The notes under the pieces were generated by a model. That model was not told where the DNA came from. It worked only from the letters and a program-made list of their open reading frames with translations, and ran no database searches. A DNA stretch of 49,963 bases from an uncultured Bacilli bacterium (GTDB lineage: Bacteria; Bacillota_I; Bacilli_A; RF39; UBA660), in assembly GCA_944358405.1 (NCBI GenBank), contig CALVQX010000013.1, positions 1 through 49,963 of the forward strand, read 5' to 3'. Positions 24,079 through 48,265 of this stretch are shown here, piece after piece; the first letter of the stretch is position 1, and each line of letters starts with the position of its first letter. The position numbers and the translations under genes are program-made.

Positions 24079-26307
24079 TTAATTATCAAAAAAGTCATCA
24101 AAGAAATCATCATCGTCGTCATCATCAGAAAGAGTTAAATCTGCCTTTTCCTTTTCTTTTTCATTTATCATTGGATCGGAATTTGTTTTTTTCTCTTCTT
24201 CTGAGGATGGAGCGGACGGTGAGGTTGTCTTGGCAGATTCTTCTTGGTTTGGTTCTTTAGTCGTTTTCTTACTTTCTTCTTTATTTCTTTTCTCTTCTGC
24301 TTCTAATTCTTCTATCTTTGCCTCTATTTTCTTTACTAGTTCATTTACATCAAATCCTAGGTCATCGTCTTGTTTTGGCGTAGATTGAGCTGGTTTAGAA
24401 TTCATAGCCATTGGATTTAGAAATGATGGAATACTTGGTGAATCTTGTCTTGGTGCTTGTGCCATTGGCGATGAAGTGGAAGGCATTGTTTCTCTTGGAG
24501 CAAATGGATTTTTTCCCATTGGTGGAAGAAAGCCACCTAGATTTGGATCTTTTTGAGCTTGAGAAGGATTTTCTTCTGCCGCATTCATCATCTCTAATAG
24601 TTTTTTCTTTTTCTGATTTTTTACAAATTCTTTAATATCGAAAGTATGTACTTCTTCTTTTTCTCTTGTTGGATAAGTTGCCTGAGGATATTTGCGTCCC
24701 CAATCCAATTTGAAATAAGGGGTAAATTTTGTTTTAAATGGTTGTTTTCTCATTCTCATAATAATTACTTCAAATTGTTTCATGCGCTGTAAATCCGAAA
24801 CTGTAACTAATGGAGTGGAAGCCGTTTTATCATCTTTTTTAGATTTTACTTCTCCACACATTTTAGAAATTTCTTCTAAGGCTTTTAACTCTGTCGTAAT
24901 TAAGTAAATAATATTTCCGCAGTTACCTCGAATCGTTTCGGCATCTTCTTTTCCATAGACGGAATCTAATTGAGCAAAGTTTTGGATAATCATTGTAAAA
25001 CGAATTGCTCTTGAACGGGCAGCAGTAATCATTGTAGTAACGTCTTTTAATGGTGGCATATTGGCAAACTCATCTAGTAAGAAATTGGTACGAACAGGAA
25101 GTTTTCCCCCATGTTGCTGAGCAACAGCAATAAGCGTTTCATAAATTTGCTTTAAGAGAATTGTTACTAGAGAGTGATATGTTTTCTTTTCGTCCTGAAT
25201 AACGATAAATACCGCAGTTGGTTTTTCTCCAATACTTTCTAGTTCAATATCACTATGAGATAACATTTCACTTAGATTATCTCTTGATGCAAATAATTTG
25301 ACCTTTTGTTTAAATACAGATAGGATAGATCCTTTTGTTTCTGCTGGTGCCATGATAGTACTTGATGCATTAATTGCTGCGGCACTTGCTGGATCTTTGG
25401 CATTGAAGTATTCTTTAATATATGTAGATCCTCCGAATTTCTCTTCTCCAACAGTTGTTGCTAGAGAGATACTATTAATATTAATTTCATCTTCTTTGGC
25501 ATCTTCAAAAAGACCTAAGGCTACTCCAGAAAAATAATCTGCTGATGTTTTTTCCCAGAATGGATCTGCATTTTTATTGGATTCATCATACAAAATATTC
25601 AATGCTAAGTCATCTAATAACTCAATTGCTTTGTCTTGATTTCCTTCTTTGTACATACGATATGGTAAAGTCATTGGATTCCAAGCATTTCCATTTTGTG
25701 GGTCACGGAAATTTAATAGTAAAATTTGGTATCCTCTATCCCGAAGCATCATACTTGTTTTTTCGTAGATTTCTCCTTTAGGATCGGTAATAATCATCGA
25801 TTCTTTGGCTTTTGCTAAACTATGTACTAATGGTAAAATTACAGTTTGTGTTTTACCACTACCAGTTGCACCAATGACTAAGGAATGATATTCACTATTA
25901 TCTACCCACATCTCTTTATCATTTAAAATTAAAGGTACTCCAGCTGCTTTGGAATTTTCTTGTTGAATTTCTACACGCTCTAATTCTTCTTTAATTTCTC
26001 TTTCTTTTGCCCAACGAGAATATCCTTTATCTTTTTTATCCGTTGTAAAACCAAACCCTTTGTCTCGTTCGAAAAAATAAGAGCTAACACTAACAAACAA
26101 ACCAAATAAGCATAAAAGATAAAATGTGGTAGTCGCAACTATGTATTTTTCTGAAAAGGCAGGAAGTGGATTTAGCCCAGCAAATGTTCCTTCGGTTGCA
26201 AAAGTAGATAAATTCACTACTCCAATGGCAACGATATATAATAAAAATAGTGCAAAGCCACCAAAAATTAATAAATCTTCTGGATCTGCTCGAAATTTGA
26301 ATTTCAT
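24079..26307 (-). CDS. virD4: VirD4/TraG-type coupling ATPase
   Basis: A 742-residue type IV coupling protein. Two membrane segments (about 12-32 and 58-80), then the RecA-like core: Walker A 'GATGSGKT' (146-153), 'MIITDPKGEIYEKTS', Walker B 'NFLLDEFANMPPL' (408-420), and 'ITAARSRAIRFTMIIQNFAQ'. A 180-residue Pro/Ser/Glu tail follows and ends in a run of Asp and Phe. Such ATPases bring substrates to the type IV channel. No relaxase is seen in the window, so the cargo is more likely protein. An extended -10 promoter precedes it. Confidence 0.95.
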   Translation of the reverse strand: MKFKFRADPEDLLIFGGFALFLLYIVAIGVVNLSTFATEGTFAGLNPLPAFSEKYIVATTTFYLLCLFGLFVSVSSYFFERDKGFGFTTDKKDKGYSRWAKEREIKEELERVEIQQENSKAAGVPLILNDKEMWVDNSEYHSLVIGATGSGKTQTVILPLVHSLAKAKESMIITDPKGEIYEKTSMMLRDRGYQILLLNFRDPQNGNAWNPMTLPYRMYKEGNQDKAIELLDDLALNILYDESNKNADPFWEKTSADYFSGVALGLFEDAKEDEININSISLATTVGEEKFGGSTYIKEYFNAKDPASAAAINASSTIMAPAETKGSILSVFKQKVKLFASRDNLSEMLSHSDIELESIGEKPTAVFIVIQDEKKTYHSLVTILLKQIYETLIAVAQQHGGKLPVRTNFLLDEFANMPPLKDVTTMITAARSRAIRFTMIIQNFAQLDSVYGKEDAETIRGNCGNIIYLITTELKALEEISKMCGEVKSKKDDKTASTPLVTVSDLQRMKQFEVIIMRMRKQPFKTKFTPYFKLDWGRKYPQATYPTREKEEVHTFDIKEFVKNQKKKKLLEMMNAAEENPSQAQKDPNLGGFLPPMGKNPFAPRETMPSTSSPMAQAPRQDSPSIPSFLNPMAMNSKPAQSTPKQDDDLGFDVNELVKKIEAKIEELEAEEKRNKEESKKTTKEPNQEESAKTTSPSAPSSEEEKKTNSDPMINEKEKEKADLTLSDDDDDDDFFDDFFDN

Positions 26308-26367: not shown

Positions 26368-27147
26368 TTATTGATTTGATATTAATAACTTAAATTCATT
26401 CTCTTTCCATTGATATAGCATTACGATTGGCTCTTCTATGCTATACTGATTGCAAGTTACTATTAGCTCATTTTTTTTATCATTATCTGCATCCAACACA
26501 GAAGTAATCATTGGTTTGCAACCATTTGTCCCCTTATTATTATCAATTGCACTATAAAGTAAAGAAAGAGTTCCATTTTTTTCCATGAATACAAAAGAAA
26601 ATACTTTTTCGGGATTACTATCCATTGGAAAGGCATTGCTTAAGGTATAAAAATTCTCTATTATTCCATCTTGGTCTATGTCAATATGACTTACTTCATT
26701 TACTGTTAATTCTTGATTTATTAGCAGATTATTTTCTGTTAAAACTTGATCTACATATGTCCTATCTGTTACTTCTTCTGTAATAAATTCTTGCAGTTTT
26801 AATTCAAAATTTCCAGAAAAGGCAAGAAGATCTCCTTGATAATTGATCGCATTTCTATCTTTATCAAATAAATACCATTTATCATCATACCATAAATCAT
26901 AATTTCCTAATTTTTTATTATCAACATAGACCTGGTATTCTTGCCAATTTAGTTCTTTCATATCTGAATTACTTCTAATATTATACCATTTTCTATTGGA
27001 TAATTCCCAAATCGTATGGTTTCCTACAATTAGTTTTATTGTAGATTCTTTTTCTTTTTGATAATCTTTACCAATTAGAAAATATAGGGCAACGAAATAA
27101 ATAATTAATATGACAAGTAAAATAATATATCTTTTATTTTTTTTCAT
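26368..27147 (-). CDS. Membrane-anchored extracytoplasmic protein with Asp-loop motifs
   Basis: A 259-residue protein: a basic start, one membrane segment (about 7-25), and an outside domain. Two loops resemble Ca-binding FG-GAP/VCBS turns: 'DIDQDGIIENFY' and 'DADNDKKNELIV'. The middle is beta-rich ('WYDDKWYLFDKDRN'). No known family named; it sits between the wall hydrolase and virD4, so a role in the type IV apparatus or its surface is likely. Confidence 0.6.
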   Translation of the reverse strand: MKKNKRYIILLVILIIYFVALYFLIGKDYQKEKESTIKLIVGNHTIWELSNRKWYNIRSNSDMKELNWQEYQVYVDNKKLGNYDLWYDDKWYLFDKDRNAINYQGDLLAFSGNFELKLQEFITEEVTDRTYVDQVLTENNLLINQELTVNEVSHIDIDQDGIIENFYTLSNAFPMDSNPEKVFSFVFMEKNGTLSLLYSAIDNNKGTNGCKPMITSVLDADNDKKNELIVTCNQYSIEEPIVMLYQWKENEFKLLISNQ

Positions 27148-27156
27148 TATTTTCTC

Positions 27157-29517
27157 CTATCCTACCTTAAAATATGCTATGGTACTTGTATTTCCCCAAG
27201 GATATTCTGCCCACATATCTGTTGATGTACTACCTGGATCCATCATCCTTATTGTATCATTAGAAACACTGTCAATTGCTACCCAGTGTTGTCCTGTATT
27301 TCCTTTTACTTCTGCTACTACATAATATCCTTGGTCTAGTAATTCTTGGATTCGTTGTAATTTTTGATCTCTGCTATATCCGGAAACTGATATTTTCTGT
27401 TGGAAAACAAAGGATGGTGCAGCATTGCTTACAGATGCCCAAATTAAATTTCCACCAGAAAAACCATTGTGATCATTTAAATATTCTACAAACGTTCCTG
27501 GATTAAATTCACCATTAATATTGGTATCTACACCACTTTTTTCAATTAACATAGCAATCGATGTTACAAGGCAGCCAATATCTTTGATTGTTTGCCCACT
27601 AGTACCTACCATTACATTTGTCCATGATCCTTGATACTGTTTCCAGCTTGAATATGGACCTGCAGCGATCGTTCCATCACTTGTACAGGTACTAGAACCA
27701 TCAATATTACAAGTATTTTCTTGAATATCTTTTACTCCAGAATAATGTTGCATTAATATCTGTTTATAATTCATTCCACCAACAGCCCAGTCATACCATT
27801 TTCTTTGATCACTACTTAAGTATGGGGTTGTATAGACCCAACCATTTTCATCTACAGCAACTTCTCCCATGACTTCACTTACGGCTCTTCTTAAAATATG
27901 ATCTTGTGCTAAAGGGCCTAAATATTGATAAGCTTTCGTACTTGCCCCAGAGTAAACTGTCGTGCTATTTCCAGAATCGCTTGGATTTGTAGTATTAGAG
28001 CATCCCTGATCTGGATCACAATATACTTGATCCTCTGTACAGTTTCTAATTTGTAGAATCCATTGACCATTTTCTTCGCTAAATTTTGAACCTCCTGCTC
28101 CTCCCATGATGGTTGCTCTAGTTAGGGAAAAACTACGTGCTGCTACAGCTTGTGCTTTATATAATTCTTCGTGTACTAGTCCTCCTGTTTCTGCATAAAC
28201 GACACCCAAGATATATTTTTCAAATGGAACTAATTCTTCTCCTTCTATTGGAGTGCCTAATCCTTGATCAGAACAGTTCATCAGTCTTACTTGAATGTCT
28301 GATGCTGTTATGGAAGAAGCAGAAGATGCTCCAGAGGTTGCTCCATTAAATCCTTGAATATTATAAACACAGCTTCCTAAAGAGGCACATGTGTTATTTG
28401 CATTGTCGTTTCCTATGAAATTGTAATACCTATCTATATAATCAAATACATCTTCTGTCATTTGTTGTCTTTCTTCTAGGGTAGAATTTGGAAAATAACT
28501 TGCAAAAATTTGATAAGTTAGATTCGATTTAAATGTAGATTCACTATAACTATTTCCATCAAACATAGCATCTGCAATTTGTTCAATCTTAGAAGTCGTC
28601 ATATCTTCATAATTTGCACCATCATTAATATGAATGATGTGATATACGGCAACTACTTTCAAGGCATCTACTGTTTTCCCATTGGATTGATAGTTCAATT
28701 TTACTTGGTTTACACGTTCATAAAAATCTTGAGCATCAGGGTCTGTAGAATTTACTTCAATTCCGCCCGTATCTCCTCCTGTTAAATTGCTAATTCCTAA
28801 GGCGTCTTCATAGTCACTTAGGGTACCTGTTACTGAGGTAATAATTACTAAAATTAGGGCAATAAATATTAGAAAGGGGATTGCAACGGAAATTGCAATT
28901 TTCATAGGTAATGGCATGTTACCAAAACCAAATCCAGATAATTTTGCTTTGTCACCTTCTACATTTCTTTCTGATTCGTCACCTAGGATGCTTTTCCCGC
29001 CTCTTTTTCGTCCAAATAAAGAATTTGCTTTAGAATCCTGATTTTCTGAAGATGCTTTTTCTTCCCCTTTTGAGGAAGTTTTTTCTTCTTCACCACTTTT
29101 TTTTGGTGGTTGATTTTTTCCACCACCAACTAAGTTCATTCCTTTATCTAAGGTATCCATGGTGCCTTTTTCATCTAATTTTTGTGTTGTCTTGGCAATC
29201 CCAGGAATTTTGTTTAAGGTCTCTGCACCTTTATTTAAAATCGCTTGTCCTGCTTTGGTTTTGGCAACTGCATCTACGGCTTTGCCACCAAGTGGTCCAC
29301 CAAAATAATTGGCAGCTCCTTTGGCTGCCGTTTTTAATGCTTTTTTTGATGCTTGTTTTTGTTGTTCTTTTTTATTATCTTCTACTGGGGTATAGGCACT
29401 GGGCTTGTTCTCCGTATTTTTTTCGGCTGCCGAATTATTTTTATTATTATTGAATGAATTGTCGCTTGTTCCTTGACTATTTTCGTTGTTGCTATTTACA
29501 TTATTATTTTCCGGCAT
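27157..29517 (-). CDS. SpoIID domain plus C39-like peptidase: wall hydrolase of the T4SS
   Basis: A 786-residue protein. Residues 1-200 are a low-complexity Asn/Lys/Ser cytoplasmic region; 205-230 a membrane segment; 260-370 a helical domain. The SpoIID-type domain begins at about 430: 'FEKYILGVVYAETGG' (Glu443 in the place of the SpoIID catalytic Glu) and 'YKAQAVAARSFSLTR'. From about 620 is a papain-like C39-type peptidase domain with Cys649 ('DIGCLVTSIAML'), His744 ('GQHWVAIDSV') and 'MMDPGS'. SpoIID is a lytic transglycosylase. It fills the slot of the VirB1/CwlT-type two-domain hydrolase, next to VirB4, and should open the wall for the channel. Confidence 0.85.
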   Translation of the reverse strand: MPENNNVNSNNENSQGTSDNSFNNNKNNSAAEKNTENKPSAYTPVEDNKKEQQKQASKKALKTAAKGAANYFGGPLGGKAVDAVAKTKAGQAILNKGAETLNKIPGIAKTTQKLDEKGTMDTLDKGMNLVGGGKNQPPKKSGEEEKTSSKGEEKASSENQDSKANSLFGRKRGGKSILGDESERNVEGDKAKLSGFGFGNMPLPMKIAISVAIPFLIFIALILVIITSVTGTLSDYEDALGISNLTGGDTGGIEVNSTDPDAQDFYERVNQVKLNYQSNGKTVDALKVVAVYHIIHINDGANYEDMTTSKIEQIADAMFDGNSYSESTFKSNLTYQIFASYFPNSTLEERQQMTEDVFDYIDRYYNFIGNDNANNTCASLGSCVYNIQGFNGATSGASSASSITASDIQVRLMNCSDQGLGTPIEGEELVPFEKYILGVVYAETGGLVHEELYKAQAVAARSFSLTRATIMGGAGGSKFSEENGQWILQIRNCTEDQVYCDPDQGCSNTTNPSDSGNSTTVYSGASTKAYQYLGPLAQDHILRRAVSEVMGEVAVDENGWVYTTPYLSSDQRKWYDWAVGGMNYKQILMQHYSGVKDIQENTCNIDGSSTCTSDGTIAAGPYSSWKQYQGSWTNVMVGTSGQTIKDIGCLVTSIAMLIEKSGVDTNINGEFNPGTFVEYLNDHNGFSGGNLIWASVSNAAPSFVFQQKISVSGYSRDQKLQRIQELLDQGYYVVAEVKGNTGQHWVAIDSVSNDTIRMMDPGSTSTDMWAEYPWGNTSTIAYFKVG

Positions 29518-29543: not shown

Positions 29544-31334
29544 TTATAGACCTCCACCACTACCAAATGAATCTAGTTCTTCTTTTGTAACTGCTATATT
29601 AATACGCATTCTTCTGTTACCACAAACAAAGAGTGCTTCTCCTTGTGAATATCTTTTAATACTTTCCTTTTCACTATCATTTAAATCAATTAATAAGCTC
29701 AAGTCTTCTACTGCTTGCTTTCTTAATCCCATTACAAGATAGTAAGAAGAATTATCAAAAATTGCCTTTCCTTGAGTAATTACAGCTGGATCAGAAAAGT
29801 CACTTGGTTGTTGGGTAATAATAATTGTTCCTGTGTTATATTTTCTAGCACGTCTTTGTACTTGGGCTAGGAAAGATGCGCCTAAAACGTTATTGTCTCC
29901 TAATAAAACGTGAGCTTCATCTACCATAAGAACTGTATTTACATCAAAATCCAAACATAATCCCCAAGCATATTTTAAAACATTAAAGAATAGAGCGTTT
30001 CTGACGTTAGAATCACTATTCATTAATTCTTTAATGTTGAATACCATAAAGTCACTGTCTCTTCTAATTGTTGTATGACCATCAAAATAGAATTTTAATT
30101 CTTTGGTAATTGGCCTTACTTTTAATTCTAGTCGCTCCATGATATCTCGTTCTTGAGTATGCTCTGTCATGGACATTAATTTTCCACGTATCGTTGCATA
30201 TACATCACTAAAGGTTGGATAGTCATTCGATGTATAAGAAGAAAAATCTGTGGTAAAATCAATTCCAAATCGTTTATAAGTATCTTGGACAATTTCACTA
30301 AACATGGTTAGAACATCTTCTTGGATCGAAGGATCATAATATTTCATGAAAGCTTTTAAAAATTGTAGTGTTCTTGTTAATACGGTATATCCTGGACCTT
30401 TCTTAATTTCTTCTTCATCTGCATCAATGACTACTTCTAATGGGTTAATTAAACCAAATTCTCCACCTTTTCCAATATCTACAGTGTCTCCACCAAAAGT
30501 TTCTGTAATCTCGCGAAATTCATCTTCTGGATCAATAATAACAATTTGGCAGCCATTTCTAATGTGAGATCGAAGCATCAATTTAGCTGCAGTTGATTTA
30601 CCTGAACCAGAGGTTCCTAAAATAATCATATTGGCATTATTTCTATTATTTTCTTTTCTAATTTTATATAAAAATTGATTGAATAAAATGACTCCTCCTG
30701 AGAAATCTACTCCTAATAAAGTAGATAGACCAGGATCTTTGATACTATCAAAAATAAACGGATACATCGCTGATAATGTTACAGATGGAATCGGTGTTCC
30801 AATTCTTTGTTCTACATCTTGAGGTGGAAAAATAGGTAGAATTGATTTTAATACTTTTTCTTGTTCAAAACGTAGAGGGATTGCTCTTAACTCCATCGCA
30901 TCTAAATAGTTTCTTACATTTACTTTTTTTAGCTCTAAATCCTCTTTCGTATCTGCAGTAATCATAATGTGCATCTGAAAATCAAAAATTCTGGCTTGAC
31001 TAGCTGCTAACATCGAAGTAAAATATTCCAAACTTTCTGCGTCTTGACGCATTCTTTCTTTCGTTGTTAAGTCTCTTTCATTTTGATATCTTTCTTTTAA
31101 ATCAGCAACTTGCTTATTCAACATTTTTGACATTTGTTGAAACGGAACAGGAATATGTTTCGCAACCACTTTAATTCCAGGCATATTGGTTAGAGATGAT
31201 AAATACCCAGGCTGAATATATTTAGGATAAGAAACTACGGTTAAGATGGTAGCATATTTATCACTAATAAAGAATTCACTAGGTGAAAAATGAAGACCCT
31301 TAGGAGCAATTTGACTTCTAATTCCGGTACTCAT
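29544..31334 (-). CDS. virB4: VirB4-type ATPase, large C-terminal piece
   Basis: A 596-residue type IV secretion ATPase. It starts at 'IAPKGLHFSPSEFFI', the middle of a normal VirB4/TraE. Walker A is 'GTSGSGKST' (240-248), Walker B 'TVLMVDEAHVLL' (Asp472-Glu473), with 'GTIIITQQPSDF' after it. Powers assembly and transfer at the cytoplasmic base. It overlaps the N-terminal piece as ATGA (31331-31334), so VirB4 is made as two linked chains here. Followed by the wall hydrolase after 26 bp. Confidence 0.95.
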   Translation of the reverse strand: MSTGIRSQIAPKGLHFSPSEFFISDKYATILTVVSYPKYIQPGYLSSLTNMPGIKVVAKHIPVPFQQMSKMLNKQVADLKERYQNERDLTTKERMRQDAESLEYFTSMLAASQARIFDFQMHIMITADTKEDLELKKVNVRNYLDAMELRAIPLRFEQEKVLKSILPIFPPQDVEQRIGTPIPSVTLSAMYPFIFDSIKDPGLSTLLGVDFSGGVILFNQFLYKIRKENNRNNANMIILGTSGSGKSTAAKLMLRSHIRNGCQIVIIDPEDEFREITETFGGDTVDIGKGGEFGLINPLEVVIDADEEEIKKGPGYTVLTRTLQFLKAFMKYYDPSIQEDVLTMFSEIVQDTYKRFGIDFTTDFSSYTSNDYPTFSDVYATIRGKLMSMTEHTQERDIMERLELKVRPITKELKFYFDGHTTIRRDSDFMVFNIKELMNSDSNVRNALFFNVLKYAWGLCLDFDVNTVLMVDEAHVLLGDNNVLGASFLAQVQRRARKYNTGTIIITQQPSDFSDPAVITQGKAIFDNSSYYLVMGLRKQAVEDLSLLIDLNDSEKESIKRYSQGEALFVCGNRRMRINIAVTKEELDSFGSGGGL

Positions 31335-31879
31335 ACTGGCATCACCGTCCCAAACTCTGTTGTATTTCCTCCATTTAAGAAATTGTCTAATACAACACGA
31401 AGATCATCATTACTTGTTTGAGCTGCATTTAGCCCACAACTAGCTAGACCATTGATCATTAATCGAACTCTTTTTTGAAGAAGATCTACATTTTTATCTT
31501 TAAACATAAAATAATATTCTGTATCTACTACATTATTATTAATGAAAGTTTGTCCTTTCTGAATATCTTGTTGAATCAATTTTCTAATCGCAGGAGCTGT
31601 TGCTTCATTATATAGTAGTTGTAATTGCGACATATATACAGAAATGTCTACTGGACGATCTGCTACTATTAGCCAAAACTCAAAATCAATTGTATTATAA
31701 AAATTCTTTAAAGCAATTAGGGTGTTATTTTGAGCATCTGGATCTAAAATAAATATATTTCTGGGAGATATTTTTACTCCAGTTACTTTTTGATTGTCGG
31801 TTGTCACGATCATTCCATTTTGAATTCCTTTGATTGGTAACCAATCCTCTGTAAATCCACTGCTTACTTTCTTTGCCAT
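31331..31879 (-). CDS. VirB4 N-terminal domain encoded separately
   Basis: A 182-residue protein corresponding to the N-terminal domain of VirB4/TraE-like proteins: 'WLPIKGIQNGMIVTTDNQKV', 'VKISPRNIFIL', 'NTIDFEFWLIVADRPVDIS' and an alpha/beta region to about 160. No nucleotide motif. Overlaps prgI by 16 bp and the ATPase piece by 4 bp. Probably interacts with the ATPase and the PrgI membrane protein at the base of the channel. Confidence 0.8.
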   Translation of the reverse strand: MAKKVSSGFTEDWLPIKGIQNGMIVTTDNQKVTGVKISPRNIFILDPDAQNNTLIALKNFYNTIDFEFWLIVADRPVDISVYMSQLQLLYNEATAPAIRKLIQQDIQKGQTFINNNVVDTEYYFMFKDKNVDLLQKRVRLMINGLASCGLNAAQTSNDDLRVVLDNFLNGGNTTEFGTVMPV

Positions 31880-32172
31880 TCTTTATAACACCAACCTTTC
31901 CAACGATATGTTTGCCTACTCGTTAAGAACTCATAAAGTTCAATAATAATATTTAACATATTATGATAATATGGAACCGGCATCACAAGAAAGGCACAAA
32001 TTACGCCTGGACTTAGAACTAATATCGTTACCCAAGTGGAGCTTAGTGGCAAAAATGCTAATAAAATGATTGTCACTAGTACACCAGAGCAAAATAGAAT
32101 TAAATCAAAAGGCCTGAATATTCCTAAAATTAATTGTCCTTTCTTTGTATTTGCGGGAATTAAATAATTCAC
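31864..32172 (-). CDS. PrgI/VirB3-like membrane protein
   Basis: A 102-residue protein of the PrgI family: 'IPANTKKGQLILGIFRPFDL' then two membrane segments (about 25-45 and 48-66), and 'TYRWKGWCYKEW'. These play the VirB3 part in Gram-positive type IV systems and lie directly before VirB4, as here. Start is GTG 32172, with AAGGAG 11 bases before it. Confidence 0.9.
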   Translation of the reverse strand: MNYLIPANTKKGQLILGIFRPFDLILFCSGVLVTIILLAFLPLSSTWVTILVLSPGVICAFLVMPVPYYHNMLNIIIELYEFLTSRQTYRWKGWCYKEWQRK

Positions 32173-32204: not shown

Positions 32205-34355
32205 TTAGTGAGGACCACCTGGAGGAGGTCCACCTGGTCCACCACCTGGAGGAGGTCCACCACCAGGTGTATCCACATTAGTTAATGGATTATCATGATA
32301 TTGACTCGTTCCTGCTGCACCAGAGTCTGCTCCAGGTCTCCATCTATTTCCGTCTTTTCCTCCTGTAATTACAGTACCTGGACCATAATGTACGTTTCCA
32401 TGTTCATCTACTGTTCTTTCAACTAATCTCTGATGATCTGTCCTTCGAGCAACAAAACCGTTTCTAATAACTCCTCGACTACCATCTTCATCATAAAAAT
32501 CTGGTCTATTTGTAATATTGTTAGCACCTGGTAATCTTTCTTTCCATGAGCGACGGAATTTTTCTTCGGCACTTGGAGTAATACGATGTGTATCTGCGAA
32601 CTTTTTAATCTCGTCATAATCTTTTCTTGCCTTACTTGCGGCGGCTTGGCTATTATTCATCCGTTGATATGCACGTTGTCTAGCCAAATCAGAAATTACT
32701 TGATTACCATTATGATCTGTAGTTATTAGTCCTGACATAGCTAATTGATCCATTTCTTGCGAAGTTAAATTTCCTTGTACTAGGCGATCGTAATAGTCTT
32801 TTGCATCTGCTGCTTGACTTTCTAAATTATTTACACGGTTCTTTTCTTGATCAAGACCCGCTTTTGACACACCATAATTTTTCCATGCAGCATTAATTCC
32901 TGCACTGCGCATCAATCTATCATTGATATTATTAAATAATCCACCTTTGGCTTTGGGATCTCCAGTTTTAATTTGAGCTGCTAAATCAGCACCCGTTCGC
33001 CAAGCTGGTGGGGCTTGTTTTCCTTGTGCCTGTGCTTCCATTGCTGCACCACCTGCATTCATTCCAGCAGCTAAGGCTCCACTGATACCAGCTCCACCAA
33101 TTAAAGCAGCAGTTCCACCTAGCATAGCATTTAATCCTACACTGCTTGGACCACCTTTAATACCTAACACATCCTTAATAAATTTAGGAGCCTGTTTTGC
33201 AAAGATAAATAGCCCTAAGCAGATGAAAATGAATGAGAAAATACCTACGAATCCACCTGCTTGATTGATTACAATTCCGTTTACAATCATGTCTTGAATT
33301 AAGAAGATTACAAAGTAAATAATTGCTAGTCGTATAAAAATATCTAGATAGGTAGTCATTAGTGCTTTTACCCAAGCTCCAAATGCTCCTCCATCTTTTC
33401 CTTGAGGGCCCATATAACTAATAATTGGGATTGGAGCAATTAATCGCAATACAGCTAGTTTTACAGCCCTAACTGCAACATCTACCGTATAACTGATTAA
33501 TATGAAGGAAAATACAAATGCTACGATACCACCGATTACTGGCCTATATGCAAAAGCATAATGACTGGTACCAAATAGTTTTTGAACGGCACTTGTTAAC
33601 TTGGAAAACCATCCACTGCTTCCAGTAGAAGCACAAGTATGATTTACTAAAGCAAACAAATCTCCTGGATCTGCATCTAGTCTTGTATAAACGTTGATAT
33701 AATCATCTGGCAAATCAGAACATACCCAGTTTTCTTTTATTGTGTCTGCTCCCTTTCCTTCTGGTGGAGCTACCTGATCTTCTTCTGGTATTAAGTTGAT
33801 GCGAATAAATCCTTTTAAAATTGTCGATGTAAAAATATCAGCAGATTGGGCTAATCTATTATTACTTGTTTGAACATCAGATGCTTCATCCGTGGTGCCT
33901 AGAATCAGTCGTCCTAGTGTATTATTGGCTAAAATACGATTTTGTAAAGAATAAAGTGTACCAAATAATAATCCGTTATTATTTAATTCTACTTCATATT
34001 CATTAGAAGCATTAGGAATATTAATTGGTACAAGTACCACTAGCATAGTCAATGCAATAATTACTCTACTAATAATGTTACCAATCCCTGCTTTTTGATC
34101 TGTAATTCTTTCCGGTGACATAATTCCTTGTAAGATTGTAACCGCTAATTTAAAGATCATGAAAACTCCTATGATCAATTGCATTCGATAATAGAAGTTT
34201 CTAACCGTAGAATTGCTGAACAGTTCAGCAGATGCTACATTAAAAAATATTTCATATACTAATCCTAAGATAAAATAGGCTGGGCGGTCTATCAGCCAAG
34301 ATGCTACAGTACGTATGGCATCACTAATTACATCTGCTTTCATTCCGTCTGTCAT
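32205..34355 (-). CDS. VirB6/TrbL-type polytopic membrane protein
   Basis: A 716-residue protein. Membrane segments lie at about 27-45, 55-75, 90-112, 265-290, 335-360 and 365-390, with an extracytoplasmic loop of about 140 residues between 115 and 260. 'VAVRAVKLAVLRLIAPIPII' and 'GAFGAWVKALMTTYLDIFIRL' are typical of the TrbL/VirB6 core. After a Gly/Ala-rich stretch there is a charged coiled coil (about 500-600) and an end rich in Gly, Pro and His. Forms the inner membrane channel. GAGGTGG precedes ATG 34355. Confidence 0.88.
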   Translation of the reverse strand: MTDGMKADVISDAIRTVASWLIDRPAYFILGLVYEIFFNVASAELFSNSTVRNFYYRMQLIIGVFMIFKLAVTILQGIMSPERITDQKAGIGNIISRVIIALTMLVVLVPINIPNASNEYEVELNNNGLLFGTLYSLQNRILANNTLGRLILGTTDEASDVQTSNNRLAQSADIFTSTILKGFIRINLIPEEDQVAPPEGKGADTIKENWVCSDLPDDYINVYTRLDADPGDLFALVNHTCASTGSSGWFSKLTSAVQKLFGTSHYAFAYRPVIGGIVAFVFSFILISYTVDVAVRAVKLAVLRLIAPIPIISYMGPQGKDGGAFGAWVKALMTTYLDIFIRLAIIYFVIFLIQDMIVNGIVINQAGGFVGIFSFIFICLGLFIFAKQAPKFIKDVLGIKGGPSSVGLNAMLGGTAALIGGAGISGALAAGMNAGGAAMEAQAQGKQAPPAWRTGADLAAQIKTGDPKAKGGLFNNINDRLMRSAGINAAWKNYGVSKAGLDQEKNRVNNLESQAADAKDYYDRLVQGNLTSQEMDQLAMSGLITTDHNGNQVISDLARQRAYQRMNNSQAAASKARKDYDEIKKFADTHRITPSAEEKFRRSWKERLPGANNITNRPDFYDEDGSRGVIRNGFVARRTDHQRLVERTVDEHGNVHYGPGTVITGGKDGNRWRPGADSGAAGTSQYHDNPLTNVDTPGGGPPPGGGPGGPPPGGPH

Positions 34356-34382: not shown

Positions 34383-35888
34383 TTAATTTAGACCACAAGT
34401 TTGATCGGTAGTGATTCCAAAAATCGTTAATAATGTATTCACTAGATCTGGAAGGAAAAATAGAGCAATTGCTAATACTAACCTAATTCCTAATCTTTTT
34501 TGAGCTTTTTTCATGCTTTCCTCGTCACTTACGATAATTGATTTTGCAAAATCCACACTACTTAATACTAAAACTAATAGTGGTCCTAATAGTTTAATAT
34601 AATTTAGCATTTTTTGCAAGAGCCACGCTACAGAATCCGGATTATTTACATCTCCTAATAAAGAGTTGCACTCTACATCACCATCATATCCTTCTAGCCA
34701 TTCTTGCATATCTTCTTGAGTAATTCCTTCCTCTGTTGTTGTATCTTCTGGATCTCCTAAGGAACCTCCATAGGAAGTGGACCCAAAAGCCTGTCCATCT
34801 GCTGCTCCTAGTTCATTTTTAGAACATACTCCACTGGATACCGATAATTCATAATTATATTTTTTGTTTCCCGTTTCTGTGACACAACGGTAGATCTCTT
34901 CTGGACATACTACTTTTTTGTCTTGATATATTTTCGAAATTAAGGAATCATTGATCGATATCTTGGCAGTATGTTCATTACCAACATTTACTTCCCAACT
35001 TGTATTTACTGAACCATAATTTTTTCCATCAATAGACCATTCTCTACTTCCATCACTATAAATTCTAAAATATGGAAAGAAATATCTTCGACTATTATAG
35101 GCACCAATTGCAGATCCTACACAACTACTGACGATTTTTTTACTAGAAAGAGAGTTCTTTTTAGCCTCTTCTGATAATGTTATCTTGCTTGCCTTTAAGC
35201 TTTGACATTCTCCTGCACATTCTTCTTGGTAACGCTCCTTTGGAAATACAGTAATGGAAGTCTCTGTCTTTTCTATAGAAAGTGTAGGACACGTATAATT
35301 TCCATCTTCTGTTTTTGCTGCTTTTAAGAAGACTTTTTTAAAATCTGCCCCATGATACCATAAATGACCATCTTTTGCTAGATCTTCTTTATCACTGAAA
35401 GCATATCCTAAGACGTCACTTGAAAAAATATGATAGGTGAAGTTGACATTTGCTGTAGAACTTTTATATGTATATTGACATTGTAAAATTTCTGTTTCGT
35501 TATCATTATTGGCAAGGTTTTCTTTCGATAAATTTACTACGGAACTTGCTATTCCTAAAGATTGAGCTGCGGTTTTATTATTTGAAACATAGATGTTTTG
35601 ATCACTTGATGTAGAGATATATTTAGGACAAGTAGCATTGTTACTTTCCATTACATATTTTCGCATTTGGTTCCAATTTGGTATTTCTTTTTCGGACTCT
35701 TGTGCTACTCCGTTTAATTTATCAACAATAGCTAAAGCAGTATAATCTTCATATATTTCAATCATTACTTGAGTTTTGCTATCATTATATGTACACTCTT
35801 TAATTGCTGTTTTGGCATTGGCATTTATCGGATTCAATATTAATATGCTGAAAAAAAACAAAAAACAAATGACGGCCTTTTTTTTCAT
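34383..35888 (-). CDS. Cys-rich ectodomain protein with VirB2-like C-terminal hairpin
   Basis: A 501-residue protein: signal peptide (1-25, 'NANAKTA'), a Cys-rich outside domain to about 410, then two membrane segments. The C-terminal 85 residues ('LLGPLLVLVLSSVDFAKSII', 'SDEESMKKAQKRLGIRLVLA') align with the small VirB2-like gene just upstream ('PIILIVLGTIDLGKAVI', 'SSDDKEVKGAQSRLIKR'). It looks like a pilin hairpin carrying a large head, perhaps a tip or minor subunit. It starts a new transcription unit with its own promoter. Confidence 0.75.
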   Translation of the reverse strand: MKKKAVICFLFFFSILILNPINANAKTAIKECTYNDSKTQVMIEIYEDYTALAIVDKLNGVAQESEKEIPNWNQMRKYVMESNNATCPKYISTSSDQNIYVSNNKTAAQSLGIASSVVNLSKENLANNDNETEILQCQYTYKSSTANVNFTYHIFSSDVLGYAFSDKEDLAKDGHLWYHGADFKKVFLKAAKTEDGNYTCPTLSIEKTETSITVFPKERYQEECAGECQSLKASKITLSEEAKKNSLSSKKIVSSCVGSAIGAYNSRRYFFPYFRIYSDGSREWSIDGKNYGSVNTSWEVNVGNEHTAKISINDSLISKIYQDKKVVCPEEIYRCVTETGNKKYNYELSVSSGVCSKNELGAADGQAFGSTSYGGSLGDPEDTTTEEGITQEDMQEWLEGYDGDVECNSLLGDVNNPDSVAWLLQKMLNYIKLLGPLLVLVLSSVDFAKSIIVSDEESMKKAQKRLGIRLVLAIALFFLPDLVNTLLTIFGITTDQTCGLN

Positions 35889-35960: not shown

Positions 35961-35966
35961 CTAATT

Positions 35967-36307
35967 TTAGTTTCCTGCTGCTCTCCAACAGTTTTCCCAA
36001 CTAGTTGCATCTCCAACATTACTATCATCAGCATTCGATAATAAAGACATAAGTAGAGTAACGATAGTTACAACAAAGAAAATTGCAACTGCATAAATAC
36101 AACGTTTAATCAATCTACTTTGTGCGCCTTTACTTCTTTATCATCACTAGAAATCACGGCTTTTCCTAAATCGATCGTTCCAAGGACAATCAAAATAATG
36201 GGAATACCTATTTGAATGATAGGGAAAACACCTTTTCTAATCACTTTTACGATTGGTAATAATCCGCCACAAGGATCCGTAGCAGCTATTTGAAATAAAT
36301 TTGACAT
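35967..36307 (-). pseudogene. VirB2/TrbC-like pilin with an apparent -1 frameshift
   Basis: The open frame from ATG 36307 gives 65 residues ending at TGA 36110 ('...SSDDKEVKAHKVD'). If one base is re-read at about 36128 (GTAAAGGCG), the protein goes on as 'KGAQSRLIKRCIYAVAIFFV' to a TAA at 35967, about 113 residues. It then has three hydrophobic helices, and the joined part aligns well with the C-terminus of the 501-residue neighbour. So this is one small pilin-like gene split by a shift. It may be an indel, an assembly error in an A tract, or programmed frameshifting. GGAGAGG precedes ATG 36307. Confidence 0.7.
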
Positions 36308-36367: not shown

Positions 36368-37351
36368 TTATCTTCTAAACAAACCAAAGATTTTGTTGGA
36401 AGACTCTTTCTTTTCTTCCGTTTTTGTTAATAGACCAATTCTTCCTAAAAAGTCACTAATTACTCCGTTCCTTTTTCGCTCATCTAAGGGGGGCATATTA
36501 TAAAACACCTTGGTATTGGCCTCATATTCAAAATCAGTGATATCTTTATTAGATAACAAACTTTTATTTAATATTAGTTTTTTCCCTTTTAATTTTGAAA
36601 ATATTGTATGATTTCTTCTAATTAGCTTATTTAATTTAATAATACTTGGTTCTAATAGATATAAAACATCACCACAAATAGAATCGTCTGTTGAATCATT
36701 TAAATCTATTAATATAATCGATGCGTTTCGATATCTTTCAATAATACTACGCAATTGAGCACTAGTGGTTGAGATCATATTCTTATCGTTAAATACGCTA
36801 AAATCATTTTTATCTACTTCAATGGCTACTACTGCATTGCCTAATTCTACTGTTAATTCTTTTTTTAACATATAAATTAACGTAGTTGCTCCGGCATGTT
36901 CTGTAACATTTCTAACTCCAATTATTTTGGTTCCATTTTCCACTTTGTTGACAATGGTCGTAGATAGATCGTTGAGTTGTTGAATATGTGCCACATCTTT
37001 ATATGTATTACTTTTTTTAATTAAATATTTTATTCCATCTAAGTTCGTTGTAAAATTATAAATTCCAACGGAAATTAACTTAGATAGAAAATTAGAGGTA
37101 CATAAATTACTGTTTTCTGGTAAAAAGAAAATGATTTTTTCTACATCTAATCCCATCGCTAAGGTTTGATAACTTCTGATGTCTTCATAATTTTTAATTG
37201 CTGTTACATCTAGAACCATTTTATTGTAAAAAAAGCTTTTAAACATTTCTACAATTTCACTTGCTTCGTAGGTACCAGTAATACTTTTTATAATGTCAAT
37301 ATCTAAATTAGATAATATATTCTGTTGACTATTTGCTATTACAACATTCAT
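36368..37351 (-). CDS. CpaE/TadZ-like protein with degenerate Walker A
   Basis: A 327-residue protein. The first 110 residues form a receiver-like alpha/beta domain; the rest resembles the MinD/ParA-type fold of CpaE/TadZ. The P-loop place reads 'IGVRNVTEHAGATTLIYML', in which the lysines of the Walker A are missing, and 'ASIILIDLNDS' follows as the beta strand with Asp. TadZ places the Tad machine in the cell. ATG 37351 is preferred to GTG 37363, as GGGTGA lies before it. Falls between the TadE-like and VirB2-like genes. Confidence 0.75.
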   Translation of the reverse strand: MNVVIANSQQNILSNLDIDIIKSITGTYEASEIVEMFKSFFYNKMVLDVTAIKNYEDIRSYQTLAMGLDVEKIIFFLPENSNLCTSNFLSKLISVGIYNFTTNLDGIKYLIKKSNTYKDVAHIQQLNDLSTTIVNKVENGTKIIGVRNVTEHAGATTLIYMLKKELTVELGNAVVAIEVDKNDFSVFNDKNMISTTSAQLRSIIERYRNASIILIDLNDSTDDSICGDVLYLLEPSIIKLNKLIRRNHTIFSKLKGKKLILNKSLLSNKDITDFEYEANTKVFYNMPPLDERKRNGVISDFLGRIGLLTKTEEKKESSNKIFGLFRR

Positions 37352-37381
37352 TTCATTTATCACCCTTTTCTACATTAGGGA

Positions 37382-37819
37382 TTAATTGTTGGGATCTATC
37401 AACTTTGTACTACCAGATACTTGGAAAAAGCGAAGGCCAATTCTATTGATAATCGGTATTTCTATATTGATTTTTGTCACCACTTCATAATAGAATTTAT
37501 TGCTTCCGTCAATTCCACCAGTATCAGTAGAGGCCTCTACCCTTCTAATGCAGTAACCTTTTTCCATTCGGCAATCATATCCACTTAATCTAAAGCCTTC
37601 TGCATTATAACCAATTTCTTTCATATAATTTGTAATTGTTCTATCACAAGCGCTTTCCTCAGGACAAACGCCTTCATATTGCTCAAGTGTGCTTATTATT
37701 TTGTTTTTAACGCGAAAAGCCTTTGTATAATTCACATTAAAAGCTAAATAACCGCTAACTAATACTAAGAAAACTACGATGATAGCAATATTTACAATTC
37801 CACCAAAAGCATCCCGCAT
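37382..37819 (-). CDS. TadE-like pseudopilin
   Basis: A 145-residue protein with an N-terminal membrane helix (about 8-28, 'IVNIAIIVVFLVLVSGYLAF') and an outside domain with four Cys ('CPEESAC', 'YDCRMEKGYC'). It ends with 'VVTKINIEIPIINRIGLRFF', a pattern shared with TadE/TadF-like minor pilins (the 'P.....' and 'V.G.T' end). It lies directly between the Flp-like pilin and the CpaE-like gene, as in tad loci. Confidence 0.65.
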   Translation of the reverse strand: MRDAFGGIVNIAIIVVFLVLVSGYLAFNVNYTKAFRVKNKIISTLEQYEGVCPEESACDRTITNYMKEIGYNAEGFRLSGYDCRMEKGYCIRRVEASTDTGGIDGSNKFYYEVVTKINIEIPIINRIGLRFFQVSGSTKLIDPNN

Positions 37820-37834
37820 CTTTTACACCTCTTA

Positions 37835-38008
37835 TTATTTATTTTGAATTACAATCATACCACCTTGATAATTTCCACTAATATTTCCCCATTGACTATT
37901 TAAGCTTGCTTGGATATTAGGCCACAAAAGCCAGAAAAAGCCGATGACTGCTGCAATTGCAATTAATGTGATTACTGTTAAATTTAATTCTCCTGTTGCT
38001 GCTTTCAT
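37835..38008 (-). CDS. Flp-like small pilin
   Basis: A 57-residue protein: 'MKAATGELNLTVITLIAIAA' has a short head with Gly-Glu-Leu (a class III-like leader cleavage pattern would be G/E), then one hydrophobic helix and a short 40-residue polar end. This is the plan of Flp pilins. ATG 38008 is preferred to GTG 38020, which overlaps the AAAGGAG site. It has its own near-consensus promoter, as expected of the main structural subunit. No prepilin peptidase gene is in the window. Confidence 0.65.
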   Translation of the reverse strand: MKAATGELNLTVITLIAIAAVIGFFWLLWPNIQASLNSQWGNISGNYQGGMIVIQNK

Positions 38009-38040
38009 TGATTTTTCCACTCCTTTCTATTATCATTATT

Positions 38041-38069
38041 ATTATACCAAAATTTTTTTTTTTAAACAA
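38041..38069 (-). promoter_or_regulatory. Strong promoter before the Flp-like pilin
   Basis: TTGTTT (38064-38069), 17 bp with a long A tract, TATAAT (38041-38046) with TGG extended -10 on the minus strand. Lies in the 70-bp gap after the tadC-like gene; leader about 26 nt. Confidence 0.8.
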
Positions 38070-38078
38070 CATCTTTAT

Positions 38079-38888
38079 CTACATATTAAACATCATCATC
38101 ATAGAAATTAGTATGACTAGCATCACACCTATTCCTGTCACTACTAGCATAATCATCGTTTGATTTTCCATATGATTTAGACGTTCTTTATATTTTGTTT
38201 CCCTAGCTTTATTCTGTAGATTTGATACAGTCTTTGAAAACATCATTAATCGTTCTTGCTTTTTTTCTTGAGAACCTAGTCCTAAACGATATAATAGACG
38301 CATCATTCTCATCGAGTCTCTTACGGGATAGGTATTTGCAAATTCCATATAAGGATCAATTGAGGAATCTCCTGAATTAATCCGATCTATTAATTGCCTT
38401 AATCCTGGTTTAAAGATATCTGGAGCATCATCAATTGATTTTCCTAATGCTACCGGAACTGTATAATGTTGAATTAATATCTCTAAACTTTTTAAATAGT
38501 ATGGCAACATAACATCGATTTCATGAAGATGTGCTTTATAATATCTTTTTAAACTACTGTAACTTGATTTGAACATGACCACGGCCACAACAATAGCTAG
38601 TACTAAATTTAAGAAAAATTGGGAATCTATTAAACTATCTGAACTACTACTTCCTATCGTAAAAGCAAAAACTACGAAGAATGCGATGATCGAATAAAAT
38701 ACTCTTTTAATATATAATTGATCCGCATCTACATCTTCTCCGTATTTGGCATACACTAAGAAGTTATAGTCTTCTTCACGAAATATTTGCAAGTATTTTT
38801 CATTATCTGCAATAAACTTATTCTTATCAATCGTATTATTATAGATTAACATACCCATAATAATTACACCTACAATTAGTACTTCCAT
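38079..38888 (-). CDS. tadC: TadC-like inner membrane platform protein
   Basis: A 269-residue type II secretion F-domain protein. Membrane segments lie at about 3-15, 66-82, 88-106 and 245-266. The F domain is 'EIDVMLPYYLKSLEILIQHY' with 'DSMRMMRLLYRLGLGSQEKK' near 200. Platform on which the CpaF ATPase acts. Its start overlaps the stop of the tadB-like gene by one base (38888), so it is coupled. Confidence 0.85.
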   Translation of the reverse strand: MEVLIVGVIIMGMLIYNNTIDKNKFIADNEKYLQIFREEDYNFLVYAKYGEDVDADQLYIKRVFYSIIAFFVVFAFTIGSSSSDSLIDSQFFLNLVLAIVVAVVMFKSSYSSLKRYYKAHLHEIDVMLPYYLKSLEILIQHYTVPVALGKSIDDAPDIFKPGLRQLIDRINSGDSSIDPYMEFANTYPVRDSMRMMRLLYRLGLGSQEKKQERLMMFSKTVSNLQNKARETKYKERLNHMENQTMIMLVVTGIGVMLVILISMMMMFNM

Positions 38889-39790
38889 TATTCTGCACCT
38901 ACATTCTCATTATAGTATTTTTCTCCTTTTAATAAGAAGTATGTATTAATGATCAAGGTACCATGAAGTAATAATTTAATGTACCATCGATCTAGGAGAA
39001 TTAAATAAGTTTCTCTTCCTAATAAGTATTGAACAAGCATTACCATTAAATATAACATAATACCAAATTGTAAAAATGATTTATGGAAACTAGCACGTTC
39101 AATTCTATCTCTATATACACTTTCTACTAACATATCAATATCTAGTTGCATGTTATCTAAGGAATCCGCAGAATTTCTAGCTCCTTCTTTTGTAATTTGA
39201 AGAAAGAGTTGATGCATATTCTTTACAATATAGTATGGATATAGACCACTCATATACTCTAGAGATTCATCAATACTTCCATTTTGATAAGCTAACTCTA
39301 TCATATGATCTACATCTTTTTTTACTGGATCTTCTAAGATTCCTGAATTTCTAACTCCTTCTAGAGCTTTTACAAAAGACTGGGTAGTAGCAAATTCCAT
39401 AATTACATTGGAGGTGTATACTTGGATTTGTTCGAAAAGAAACTCACTGTAAATTCTTTTGCAACGTAGATAGGATAAGTAAGGAACAAACATGATTACT
39501 ACAGCTATATATATAATACAAATTACTAGATTATAGAAATATAAGTAAGTAACTACCCCTGTAAAAACAGTTAGAGCAATTACTTGTACCATATATTGTC
39601 TTGGAGTATATTCCTGACCTAATTCTTTTGTCTTTTCTCTTACCATCTTAAAGGAGTATGGAGCATATCTATCATAAATTTCTTGAATCTGTTTTGTAAT
39701 AAATTTCCCAACGTTTTGCCCTTTATAATTTCGATAGGCATAGATCCCAAGAAAGATTACGGAAATAATTACTAATTCTTCAATATACAT
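38888..39790 (-). CDS. tadB: TadB-like inner membrane platform protein
   Basis: A 300-residue protein of the type II secretion F family. Membrane segments lie at about 1-17, 70-105, 245-262 and 270-290. The middle has 'EFLFEQIQVYTSNVIMEFAT' and 'LDNMQLDIDMLVESVYRDRI'. Paired TadB and TadC proteins form the Tad platform. Directly after cpaF (16 bp) and before tadC (1-bp overlap). Confidence 0.85.
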   Translation of the reverse strand: MYIEELVIISVIFLGIYAYRNYKGQNVGKFITKQIQEIYDRYAPYSFKMVREKTKELGQEYTPRQYMVQVIALTVFTGVVTYLYFYNLVICIIYIAVVIMFVPYLSYLRCKRIYSEFLFEQIQVYTSNVIMEFATTQSFVKALEGVRNSGILEDPVKKDVDHMIELAYQNGSIDESLEYMSGLYPYYIVKNMHQLFLQITKEGARNSADSLDNMQLDIDMLVESVYRDRIERASFHKSFLQFGIMLYLMVMLVQYLLGRETYLILLDRWYIKLLLHGTLIINTYFLLKGEKYYNENVGAE

Positions 39791-39806
39791 CGATCATTCC
39801 TCCCTT

Positions 39807-41384: not shown

Positions 41385-41406
41385 ACATCCTTATCCCTTT
41401 TTCTTT

Positions 41407-42219
41407 TTAACTTTCTGTCCAAACAGTAACAGAATTGATCCATTCTTGTAATTGTTCACTACTAATGTTTACTTCTCCAGGATTCTTTTCATGGCCTTCA
41501 TTGGTTGGTACTGGAATTAGTGTTGAATCATATGTTCTTAGATATTCTGCTTTCTTTAATAAAATGTACATATCCTCTGGTACGGCAAAGACAATCATCG
41601 CTGGGGTTCTTTGTTCATCTAAATTAGAAAATACTGGTTGTCCTGATGAATCTTTTACTGCTAGTACTTTTACATTTTCTACTAATTTACCTAACATTAC
41701 TTTATCTGCATCTGCTAAGTTGGCATTTGGATCATTATCAGCAATTTTGTATACTGCTCTTAGATAGATATCAATATAGTTTCCTGGAAAAATTGAATTT
41801 CCGTAAGTAGATGCAGTGTCTACAGACATGTTATATAGTACATATCCTTTTGGATAATCAAGAATTACACTATATGGTGACTGTTCTTCTTCTACTACTG
41901 ATCTTGAGTAAAATAGACTACCTTCTGGAATAATACTATCTACTGCTGAATATTTATCAATTACTTGTGATTGATTTGTAATTACATTTCCTTTCAACAT
42001 TGCTGGTGGTACTTCCATTGTCCCAACCATTTCTTCTGTAATTTGTACCCCGGGGTTAATCGTTTCCTTTGCATAAGGTACCGTAATTGGATTTACTGCT
42101 GCTTTTACACGCATATTATATCCAATGTATAAGACAAGAATAGCAGCAACAACACCAAGTACTGTTACTGTATTCTTGTTTTGTAAGAATTTTTTAATTC
42201 CATTTCCTATGTTCCCCAT
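41407..42219 (-). CDS. cpaB: CpaB/RcpC-like SAF domain protein
   Basis: A 270-residue protein with a membrane segment at 17-35 and a SAF domain: 'VPYAKETINPGVQITEEMVG', 'IIPEGSLFYSRSVV', 'GYVLYNMSVDTAS', and the RcpC-like 'FPGNYIDIYLRA'. CpaB proteins are periplasmic or wall-side partners of Tad pili. 2 bp after the TadE-like gene and 22 bp before cpaF, as in tad operons. Confidence 0.88.
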   Translation of the reverse strand: MGNIGNGIKKFLQNKNTVTVLGVVAAILVLYIGYNMRVKAAVNPITVPYAKETINPGVQITEEMVGTMEVPPAMLKGNVITNQSQVIDKYSAVDSIIPEGSLFYSRSVVEEEQSPYSVILDYPKGYVLYNMSVDTASTYGNSIFPGNYIDIYLRAVYKIADNDPNANLADADKVMLGKLVENVKVLAVKDSSGQPVFSNLDEQRTPAMIVFAVPEDMYILLKKAEYLRTYDSTLIPVPTNEGHEKNPGEVNISSEQLQEWINSVTVWTES

Positions 42220-42221
42220 TT

Positions 42222-42719: not shown

Positions 42720-42731
42720 AACATTTCCTCC

Positions 42732-46416: not shown

Positions 46417-46437
46417 ACTCTTACTCCTATTATTTTA

Positions 46438-48255: not shown

Positions 48256-48265
48256 TTTTATTCTC

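What the first reader, a model, noticed from the sequence alone, without database searches (positions are those of the whole stretch)
27157..29517. SpoIID domain fused to a C39-like peptidase takes the place of the T4SS wall hydrolase
Gram-positive T4SSs commonly use a two-domain hydrolase (lysozyme-type plus NlpC/P60). Here the first activity is a SpoIID-type glycan-cutting domain with the likely catalytic Glu443, and the second a papain-like C39 domain with Cys649 and His744. It sits next to VirB4. Inference: a sporulation engulfment enzyme family was recruited for secretion in a spore-forming lineage.
Basis: partly seen in the sequence, partly recalled or inferred. Interest (0 to 1): 0.75.

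Follow-up and report, generated by a model that had tools for sequence, protein, structure and literature searches.

The report
SpoIID–C39 wall enzyme of chromosomal T4SS
A membrane-anchored, probably cell-wall-cutting protein built from a sporulation-type sugar-cutting domain and a papain-like domain sits between the two motor genes of a type IV secretion system that is a fixed chromosomal part of a whole family of uncultured gut-type bacteria, and in that slot such cutting domains are swapped almost freely between genera.

Summary
Observation confirmed. ORF 27157-29517(-), 786 aa, has a SpoIID domain (Pfam E 6e-10; profile E ~1e-12 to solved SpoIIDs) with Glu443 at the catalytic position, and a C39_2-like papain-fold domain whose Cys649 and His744 are invariant in 37/37 relatives (Asp760 in 36/37). 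Single TM at 201-236. It lies between VirB4 and VirD4, the position of a VirB1 hydrolase.

The T4SS (VirB2-like pilins, VirB6, PrgI/VirB3, a two-gene VirB4, hydrolase, VirD4) with Tad-type genes is chromosomal, has no linked relaxase, and is orthologous (VirB4 63-90% identity) in about 121 of 145 sampled genera of the family; other families of the class have only 30-34% homologues. In 92 complete loci the hydrolase slot carries SpoIID in 51, lysozyme-type domains in 24 (3 with both), combined with C39, M23, NlpC/P60 or CHAP; about 63 architecture changes on the VirB4 tree, SpoIID placement near random (27 changes, shuffled mean 30).

"Sporulation enzyme recruited" is only partly supported: T4SS SpoIIDs fall outside a supported clade of the family's sporulation-type SpoIIDs, and the window type lacks the C-terminal GHGxGMSQ motif. 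Enzymatic activity untested. New variant of a known kind.

The parts
27157..29517 (-). SpoIID-C39 T4SS wall hydrolase (VirB1 position), 786 aa
   Evidence: ORF; Pfam/NCBIfam; conserved position between VirB4 and VirD4
29134..29376 (-). Cytoplasmic N-terminal segment (residues 48-128) shared by 26 slot proteins with different catalytic domains
   Evidence: iterated profile search
28810..28917 (-). Single predicted transmembrane segment (residues 201-236)
   Evidence: hydropathy
27742..28299 (-). SpoIID domain (residues 407-592); Glu443 codon 28189-28191
27160..27648 (-). C39_2-like papain-fold domain (residues 624-786); Cys649 27571-27573, His744 27286-27288, Asp760 27238-27240
26368..27147 (-). 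Small membrane-anchored protein of unknown family, conserved after the hydrolase in close relatives
   Evidence: no Pfam hit
24079..26307 (-). VirD4 coupling protein (CD1115 family)
   Evidence: PF02534 E 8e-56; NF045973 above cut-off
29544..31334 (-). VirB4, C-terminal ATPase part
   Evidence: NF045975 E 3e-105; 63-90% identical in about 121 of 145 genera
31331..31879 (-). VirB4, N-terminal part as a separate gene
   Evidence: NF045975 positions 101-277; same split in relatives
31864..32172 (-). PrgI/VirB3-like membrane protein
   Evidence: weak match to NF045975 positions 2-96 (E 0.03); conserved position, found in 105 of 112 loci
32205..34355 (-). TrbL/VirB6-like polytopic protein
   Evidence: PF19597 above cut-off
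34383..35888 (-). VirB2-like two-TM segment at the C-terminus of a larger exported protein
   Evidence: repeated as 1-3 copies of similar two-TM proteins in most relatives
36110..36307 (-). VirB2-like two-TM protein, first half only (reading frame breaks)
   Evidence: relatives 105-118 aa; remainder reads in another frame
36368..42219 (-). Tad-type block: TadZ-like?, pilin-like proteins, TadC/TadB-like, CpaF/VirB11 ATPase (39807-41384), CpaB (41407-42219)
   Evidence: PF00437 E 5e-28, PF16976; TIGR02788, TIGR03819, TIGR03177; the TadZ/TadB/TadC/pilin names rest on position and sequence appearance only

Best explanation
It is the VirB1-type wall hydrolase of a domesticated, relaxase-less chromosomal T4SS. 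An N-terminal cytoplasmic tail and one TM helix hold it in the T4SS membrane complex. Outside, the SpoIID domain cuts glycan strands (Glu443 as the acid/base of a lytic transglycosylase) and the C39-like domain (Cys649-His744-Asp760) cuts stem or cross-link peptides, so that a local hole opens in the wall for the channel or pilus. Functionally it is a one-chain counterpart of the glycan cutter plus amidase/peptidase pair, with SpoIID in the seat that a lysozyme-type domain takes in other members. The slot is modular: the machine is conserved while its catalytic domains are exchanged. Shown: domains, catalytic-site conservation, gene order, absence of a linked relaxase, domain turnover. Inferred: membrane topology, enzymatic activities, role in channel assembly.
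For: SpoIID and C39-like domains with conserved catalytic residues. Located between virB4 and virD4 in loci across the family. The same slot in sister genera holds recognised T4SS-type hydrolases: M23 + phage lysozyme, M23 + Phage_lysozyme2, glucosaminidase + CHAP, NlpC/P60. A shared N-terminal segment links 26 slot proteins with different catalytic domains. One predicted TM segment. T4SS hydrolases of relaxase-bearing elements in the same family carry the same C39-like domain, 43-48% identical. [quoted passage not shown]
Against: No biochemical data. The window-type SpoIID lacks the C-terminal GHGxGMSQ motif, and one close relative has Met for the catalytic Glu (L025), so the domain may in some lineages only bind wall or be regulatory, as LytM and CHAP are in PrgK (PMC11323569). 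The C39 match of this protein alone is below the Pfam cut-off. The structure model was too poor to use (mean pLDDT 40).
Confidence: 0.78

Rival explanations
1. Only the C39-like domain is catalytic; the SpoIID domain is a wall-binding or regulatory module.
For: Loss of the GHGxGMSQ motif in the window type, E443 replaced in 5 of 56 (Met in L025), while Cys/His are invariant in 37/37. In PrgK only one of three domains is active (PMC11323569).
Against: Glu443 is kept in 51 of 56, and the SpoIID core residues (Lys454, Arg461, Gln497) are conserved.
Confidence: 0.2
2. The protein is a secreted or cell-surface weapon or remodeller that acts on the wall of a neighbouring cell, which is why its domains change so fast.
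For: Domain content is nearly uncoupled from the VirB4 tree; no linked relaxase; Tad-type and sortase/surface genes in the same block; in the epibiont Ca. S. epibionticum the peptidase and lysozyme genes next to virB4 are essential for epibiotic growth (PMC12102498).
Against: A predicted TM anchor and the VirB1 position fit cis action equally well; no partner organism or secretion is known.
Confidence: 0.15
3. The gene belongs to sporulation (a SpoIID paralogue used in engulfment) and lies by chance inside the T4SS block.
For: The genome has sporulation genes, among them SpoIIP; SpoIID family membership.
Against: Slot conserved between VirB4 and VirD4 across many genera, and in 41 of 92 complete loci filled without a detected SpoIID; supported separation from sporulation-type SpoIIDs; far below the sporulation SpoIID equivalog cut-off.
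Confidence: 0.03

Closest known systems
VirB1-type hydrolases of Gram-positive T4SSs (PrgK of pCF10, TraG of pIP501, Orf14 of Tn916)
   Same: Membrane-anchored, extracellular multi-domain wall hydrolase encoded with the T4SS; glycan-cutting plus peptidase modules
   Different: SpoIID replaces the SLT/lysozyme/muramidase domain and a C39-like domain replaces CHAP/NlpC; no SpoIID-bearing T4SS hydrolase was found in the paper library searched
SpoIID lytic transglycosylases (B. subtilis, B. anthracis, C. difficile) and the chlamydial SpoIID
   Same: SpoIID domain with the catalytic Glu; chlamydial SpoIID shows use outside sporulation (PMC6635528)
   Different: Fused to a peptidase, no GHGxGMSQ motif, a Cys-rich insert (C493, C500, C506), encoded in a T4SS operon
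Patescibacterial chromosomal T4SS (PMC12102498)
   Same: Chromosomal, widespread in a lineage, no linked relaxase in most, VirB2-like pilin arrays, hydrolase genes beside virB4 in some members
   Different: Bacilli with walls and sporulation genes; two-gene VirB4; Tad-type block alongside; SpoIID/C39 hydrolase. VirB4 kinship to the Patescibacteria clade not tested
Hydrolases of relaxase-bearing integrative elements in the same family (L030-L032)
   Same: The same C39-like domain, 43-48% identical to the window domain, next to VirB4
   Different: No SpoIID domain; different N-terminal region; encoded in elements with a relaxase (G003, G008)

Membership tests
SpoIID/LytB domain (PF08486) | Profile match above the curated cut-off | tested here: met
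   40 bits against 23
SpoIID/LytB domain (PF08486) | Catalytic Glu | tested here: met
   Glu443; kept in 51/56 slot SpoIIDs
SpoIID/LytB domain (PF08486) | C-terminal GHGxGMSQ motif seen in sporulation SpoIIDs | tested here: not met
   Absent in the window type; present in some other slot SpoIIDs such as L158 and L160
SpoIID/LytB domain (PF08486) | Lytic transglycosylase activity | not testable with these tools
   needs enzyme assay
Sporulation SpoIID (TIGR02870 equivalog) | Score above cut-off; groups with sporulation SpoIIDs | tested here: not met
   28.4 of 234.75 bits; separate in the tree
Peptidase C39-like (PF13529) | Profile match above the curated cut-off | tested here: inconclusive
   17.8-22.3 bits against 24 for this protein; 19 of 31 homologous domains match at E <= 0.1, best 6.4e-21
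Peptidase C39-like (PF13529) | Cys, His, Asp/Asn catalytic residues | tested here: met
   37/37, 37/37, 36/37
Gram-positive VirB1-type T4SS hydrolase | Encoded in the T4SS operon, membrane anchor, extracellular wall-cutting domains | tested here: met
   (topology predicted only)
Gram-positive VirB1-type T4SS hydrolase | SLT/lysozyme-type plus CHAP or NlpC/P60 domains | tested here: not met
   Neither found in the window protein; sister loci have them
Conjugative T4SS | Linked relaxase | tested here: not met
   None among the genes of the window scanned against Pfam; PF03432 and PF02486 absent from the own genome; a broken Mob_Pre gene lies on another contig. PF03389 and other relaxase families not searched genome-wide; genome about 90% complete
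Conjugative T4SS | VirB4 and VirD4 ATPases | tested here: met

The most novel reading that the evidence does not exclude
A whole family of small-genome gut-type Bacilli carries, as a core chromosomal trait, a domesticated T4SS joined with Tad-type pilus genes that serves contact with other cells (effector delivery, DNA release or uptake, or an epibiont-like lifestyle) rather than conjugation, and its wall hydrolase is a plug-in slot whose glycosidase and peptidase modules, SpoIID among them, are exchanged rapidly to fit changing target or partner walls.
Probability: 0.3. Interest if true: 0.82.

Novelty: new variant of a known kind. Interest (0 to 1): 0.62.

Why it matters
It adds SpoIID to the set of glycan-cutting domains used by Gram-positive T4SSs and shows that the wall-opening step of a T4SS can be changed domain by domain while the motors stay almost constant, a natural experiment on what a T4SS needs from its hydrolase. 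It also points to a family-wide, relaxase-free chromosomal T4SS in uncultured Bacilli, a second case beside Patescibacteria, whose function is open and testable.

Tried and rejected
Viral contigs, PLSDB plasmids and INPHARED phages hold no relative of the SpoIID-C39 region detectable by these searches. Genome contigs gave one relative, L025. The idea that the split VirB4 is an assembly error was rejected: the same overlap recurs in relatives. Chance placement of a sporulation gene was rejected (see rivals). An apparent GHG motif in L026 lies at another place in the domain and was taken as coincidence. The tree of SpoIID domains has many long branches and weak forks, so the number of origins in the T4SS slot is not claimed. 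No paper in the library joins SpoIID with a Gram-positive T4SS hydrolase; one paper lists SpoIID-like domains in polyvalent proteins of mobile elements (PMC5512222), which is a different setting.

Full report
Observation. The finding's ORF is real: 27157-29517, minus strand, 786 aa. Pfam places SpoIID at residues 429-511 with E 6.1e-10, above its curated cut-off; Peptidase_C39_2 matches residues 646-761 below its cut-off. Both assignments hold up with relatives. A profile from 28 SpoIID domains of relatives hits the solved SpoIIDs of Bacillus and Clostridioides at E about 1e-12 to 1e-13. Of 31 C39-like domains, 19 match PF13529 (best 6.4e-21), and the profile hits a solved C39-like peptidase. 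The catalytic Cys649 and His744 are invariant in 37 of 37 domains, Asp760 in 36 of 37, and Glu443 is kept in 51 of 56. One close relative, L025, has Met in place of the Glu.

Anatomy. Hydropathy shows one membrane segment at 201-236: a cytoplasmic tail of about 200 residues, a helix-rich linker (judged from sequence only), SpoIID at 407-592, and C39-like at 624-786. The tail segment 48-128 recurs in 26 slot proteins whose catalytic domains differ, which suggests that the tail is the docking part and the exported domains are cargo that can be exchanged.

Surroundings. On the same strand run VirD4 (24079), a small anchored protein (26368), the hydrolase, VirB4 in two genes (29544 and 31331), a PrgI/VirB3-like protein (31864), VirB6 (32205), VirB2-like two-TM proteins (34383 C-terminus, 36110), and a Tad-type block with a CpaF/VirB11 ATPase and CpaB, then a sortase and surface proteins. 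On the other side lie RmuC, a VTT-domain protein, rhodanese, a class I tRNA synthetase, trigger factor and Lon, several of which also flank the block in relatives. A recent review states that Gram-positive T4SSs universally lack VirB11 homologues (PMC12857230); here a VirB11-superfamily ATPase is close by, but its CpaB neighbour suggests that it serves the Tad-type part.

Distribution. The VirB4 gene gives matches in 123 of 145 sampled genera of the family; two of these (G355, G364) have only element-type homologues at 32-33%, leaving about 121 with a 63-90% identical orthologue. In other families of the class matches are only 30-34% identical. VirB4N and VirB4C overlap by 4 or 1 nt in 94 of 112 loci, so the split is fixed. 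No PF03432 or PF02486 relaxase was found in the own genome; a Mob_Pre gene, broken in two frames, lies on another contig. The system is therefore best read as a domesticated T4SS. It could still move elements that bring their own relaxase.

The slot. In 113 loci I read what lies between VirB4 and VirD4 (with Pfam checks). In the 92 loci closed by VirD4, SpoIID was found in 51 and lysozyme-type domains (phage lysozyme, Phage_lysozyme2, glucosaminidase or muramidase types) in 24, with both in 3; in 20 no glycosidase was recognised. Peptidase partners were C39, M23, NlpC/P60 and CHAP. On the VirB4 tree the architectures need at least 63 changes; SpoIID presence needs 27, where shuffled labels need 30 on average (range 21-36). 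Missed divergent domains and weak forks (38 of 109 inner branches under 80% support) inflate this, but genera next to each other in the tree clearly differ. The window's own close group (VirB4 above about 85%) is mostly SpoIID + C39.

Origin. Sporulation-type SpoIIDs of the family and their 450-aa paralogues form a supported clade (99% SH-aLRT) that excludes the T4SS domains. The window type lacks the GHGxGMSQ motif of sporulation SpoIIDs and carries a Cys-rich segment (C493, C500, C506) near the place where the C. difficile enzyme binds zinc (PMC6221140); whether it binds metal is open. The C39-like domain also occurs, 43-48% identical to the window domain, in hydrolases beside VirB4 in relaxase-bearing elements of the same family (L030-L032). 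In a weakly rooted tree those lie among the chromosomal ones, which fits exchange between mobile elements and the chromosomal system.

Mechanism. By homology the SpoIID domain should cut glycan strands and the C39-like domain peptides. In C. difficile SpoIID needs prior amidase action by SpoIIP (PMC6221140), while chlamydial SpoIID acts on intact peptidoglycan (PMC6635528). If the window SpoIID needs stripped glycan, the fused cysteine peptidase (C39, NlpC, CHAP) or M23 domain could do for it what SpoIIP does; this is a guess, and it predicts amidase activity of the C39 domain. PrgK warns that domains in such proteins may be inactive regulators (PMC11323569).

Verdict. The more unusual facts are the family-wide chromosomal T4SS and the rapid exchange of catalytic domains in its hydrolase slot. 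I call it a new variant of a known kind (VirB1-type hydrolase), not a new kind. A link to the order RF39 is a guess from genome size, sortase and sporulation genes (PMC10868615).

Noticed in passing
window 29544-31879: VirB4 is encoded by two overlapping genes (4-nt overlap), and the same split recurs across the family (94 of 112 loci overlap by 4 or 1 nt).
   Followed up: yes
window 35961-36307: The small VirB2-like protein gene is broken in the window: its second half reads in another frame, while relatives have intact copies of 105-118 aa. Assembly slip or real loss not decided.
   Followed up: partly
window 36368-45632: Tad-type pilus genes (CpaF/VirB11 ATPase, CpaB, membrane proteins), DUF5411 and a 966-aa Cys-rich exported protein adjoin the T4SS; a combined T4SS-Tad block also occurs in relatives.
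   Followed up: partly
L025 3687-4310: SpoIID domain with Met in place of the catalytic Glu while the C39-like domain is intact: a possible pseudo-enzyme half.
   Followed up: no
L038, L078, L080, L084, L089, L131, L136, L163, L168: Loci with M23 plus lysozyme-type hydrolases often have two extra proteins of about 160-190 aa after the hydrolase, VirB8-like in appearance, that the SpoIID-C39 loci lack.
   Followed up: no
L032 8459-10102 and genome G003 contig C5: Relaxase-bearing element whose T4SS hydrolase has the C39-like domain without SpoIID.
   Followed up: partly
window 45604-49822: Sortase, Ig-like surface protein and other exported proteins upstream of the T4SS/Tad block; possible adhesins or substrates.
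   Followed up: no
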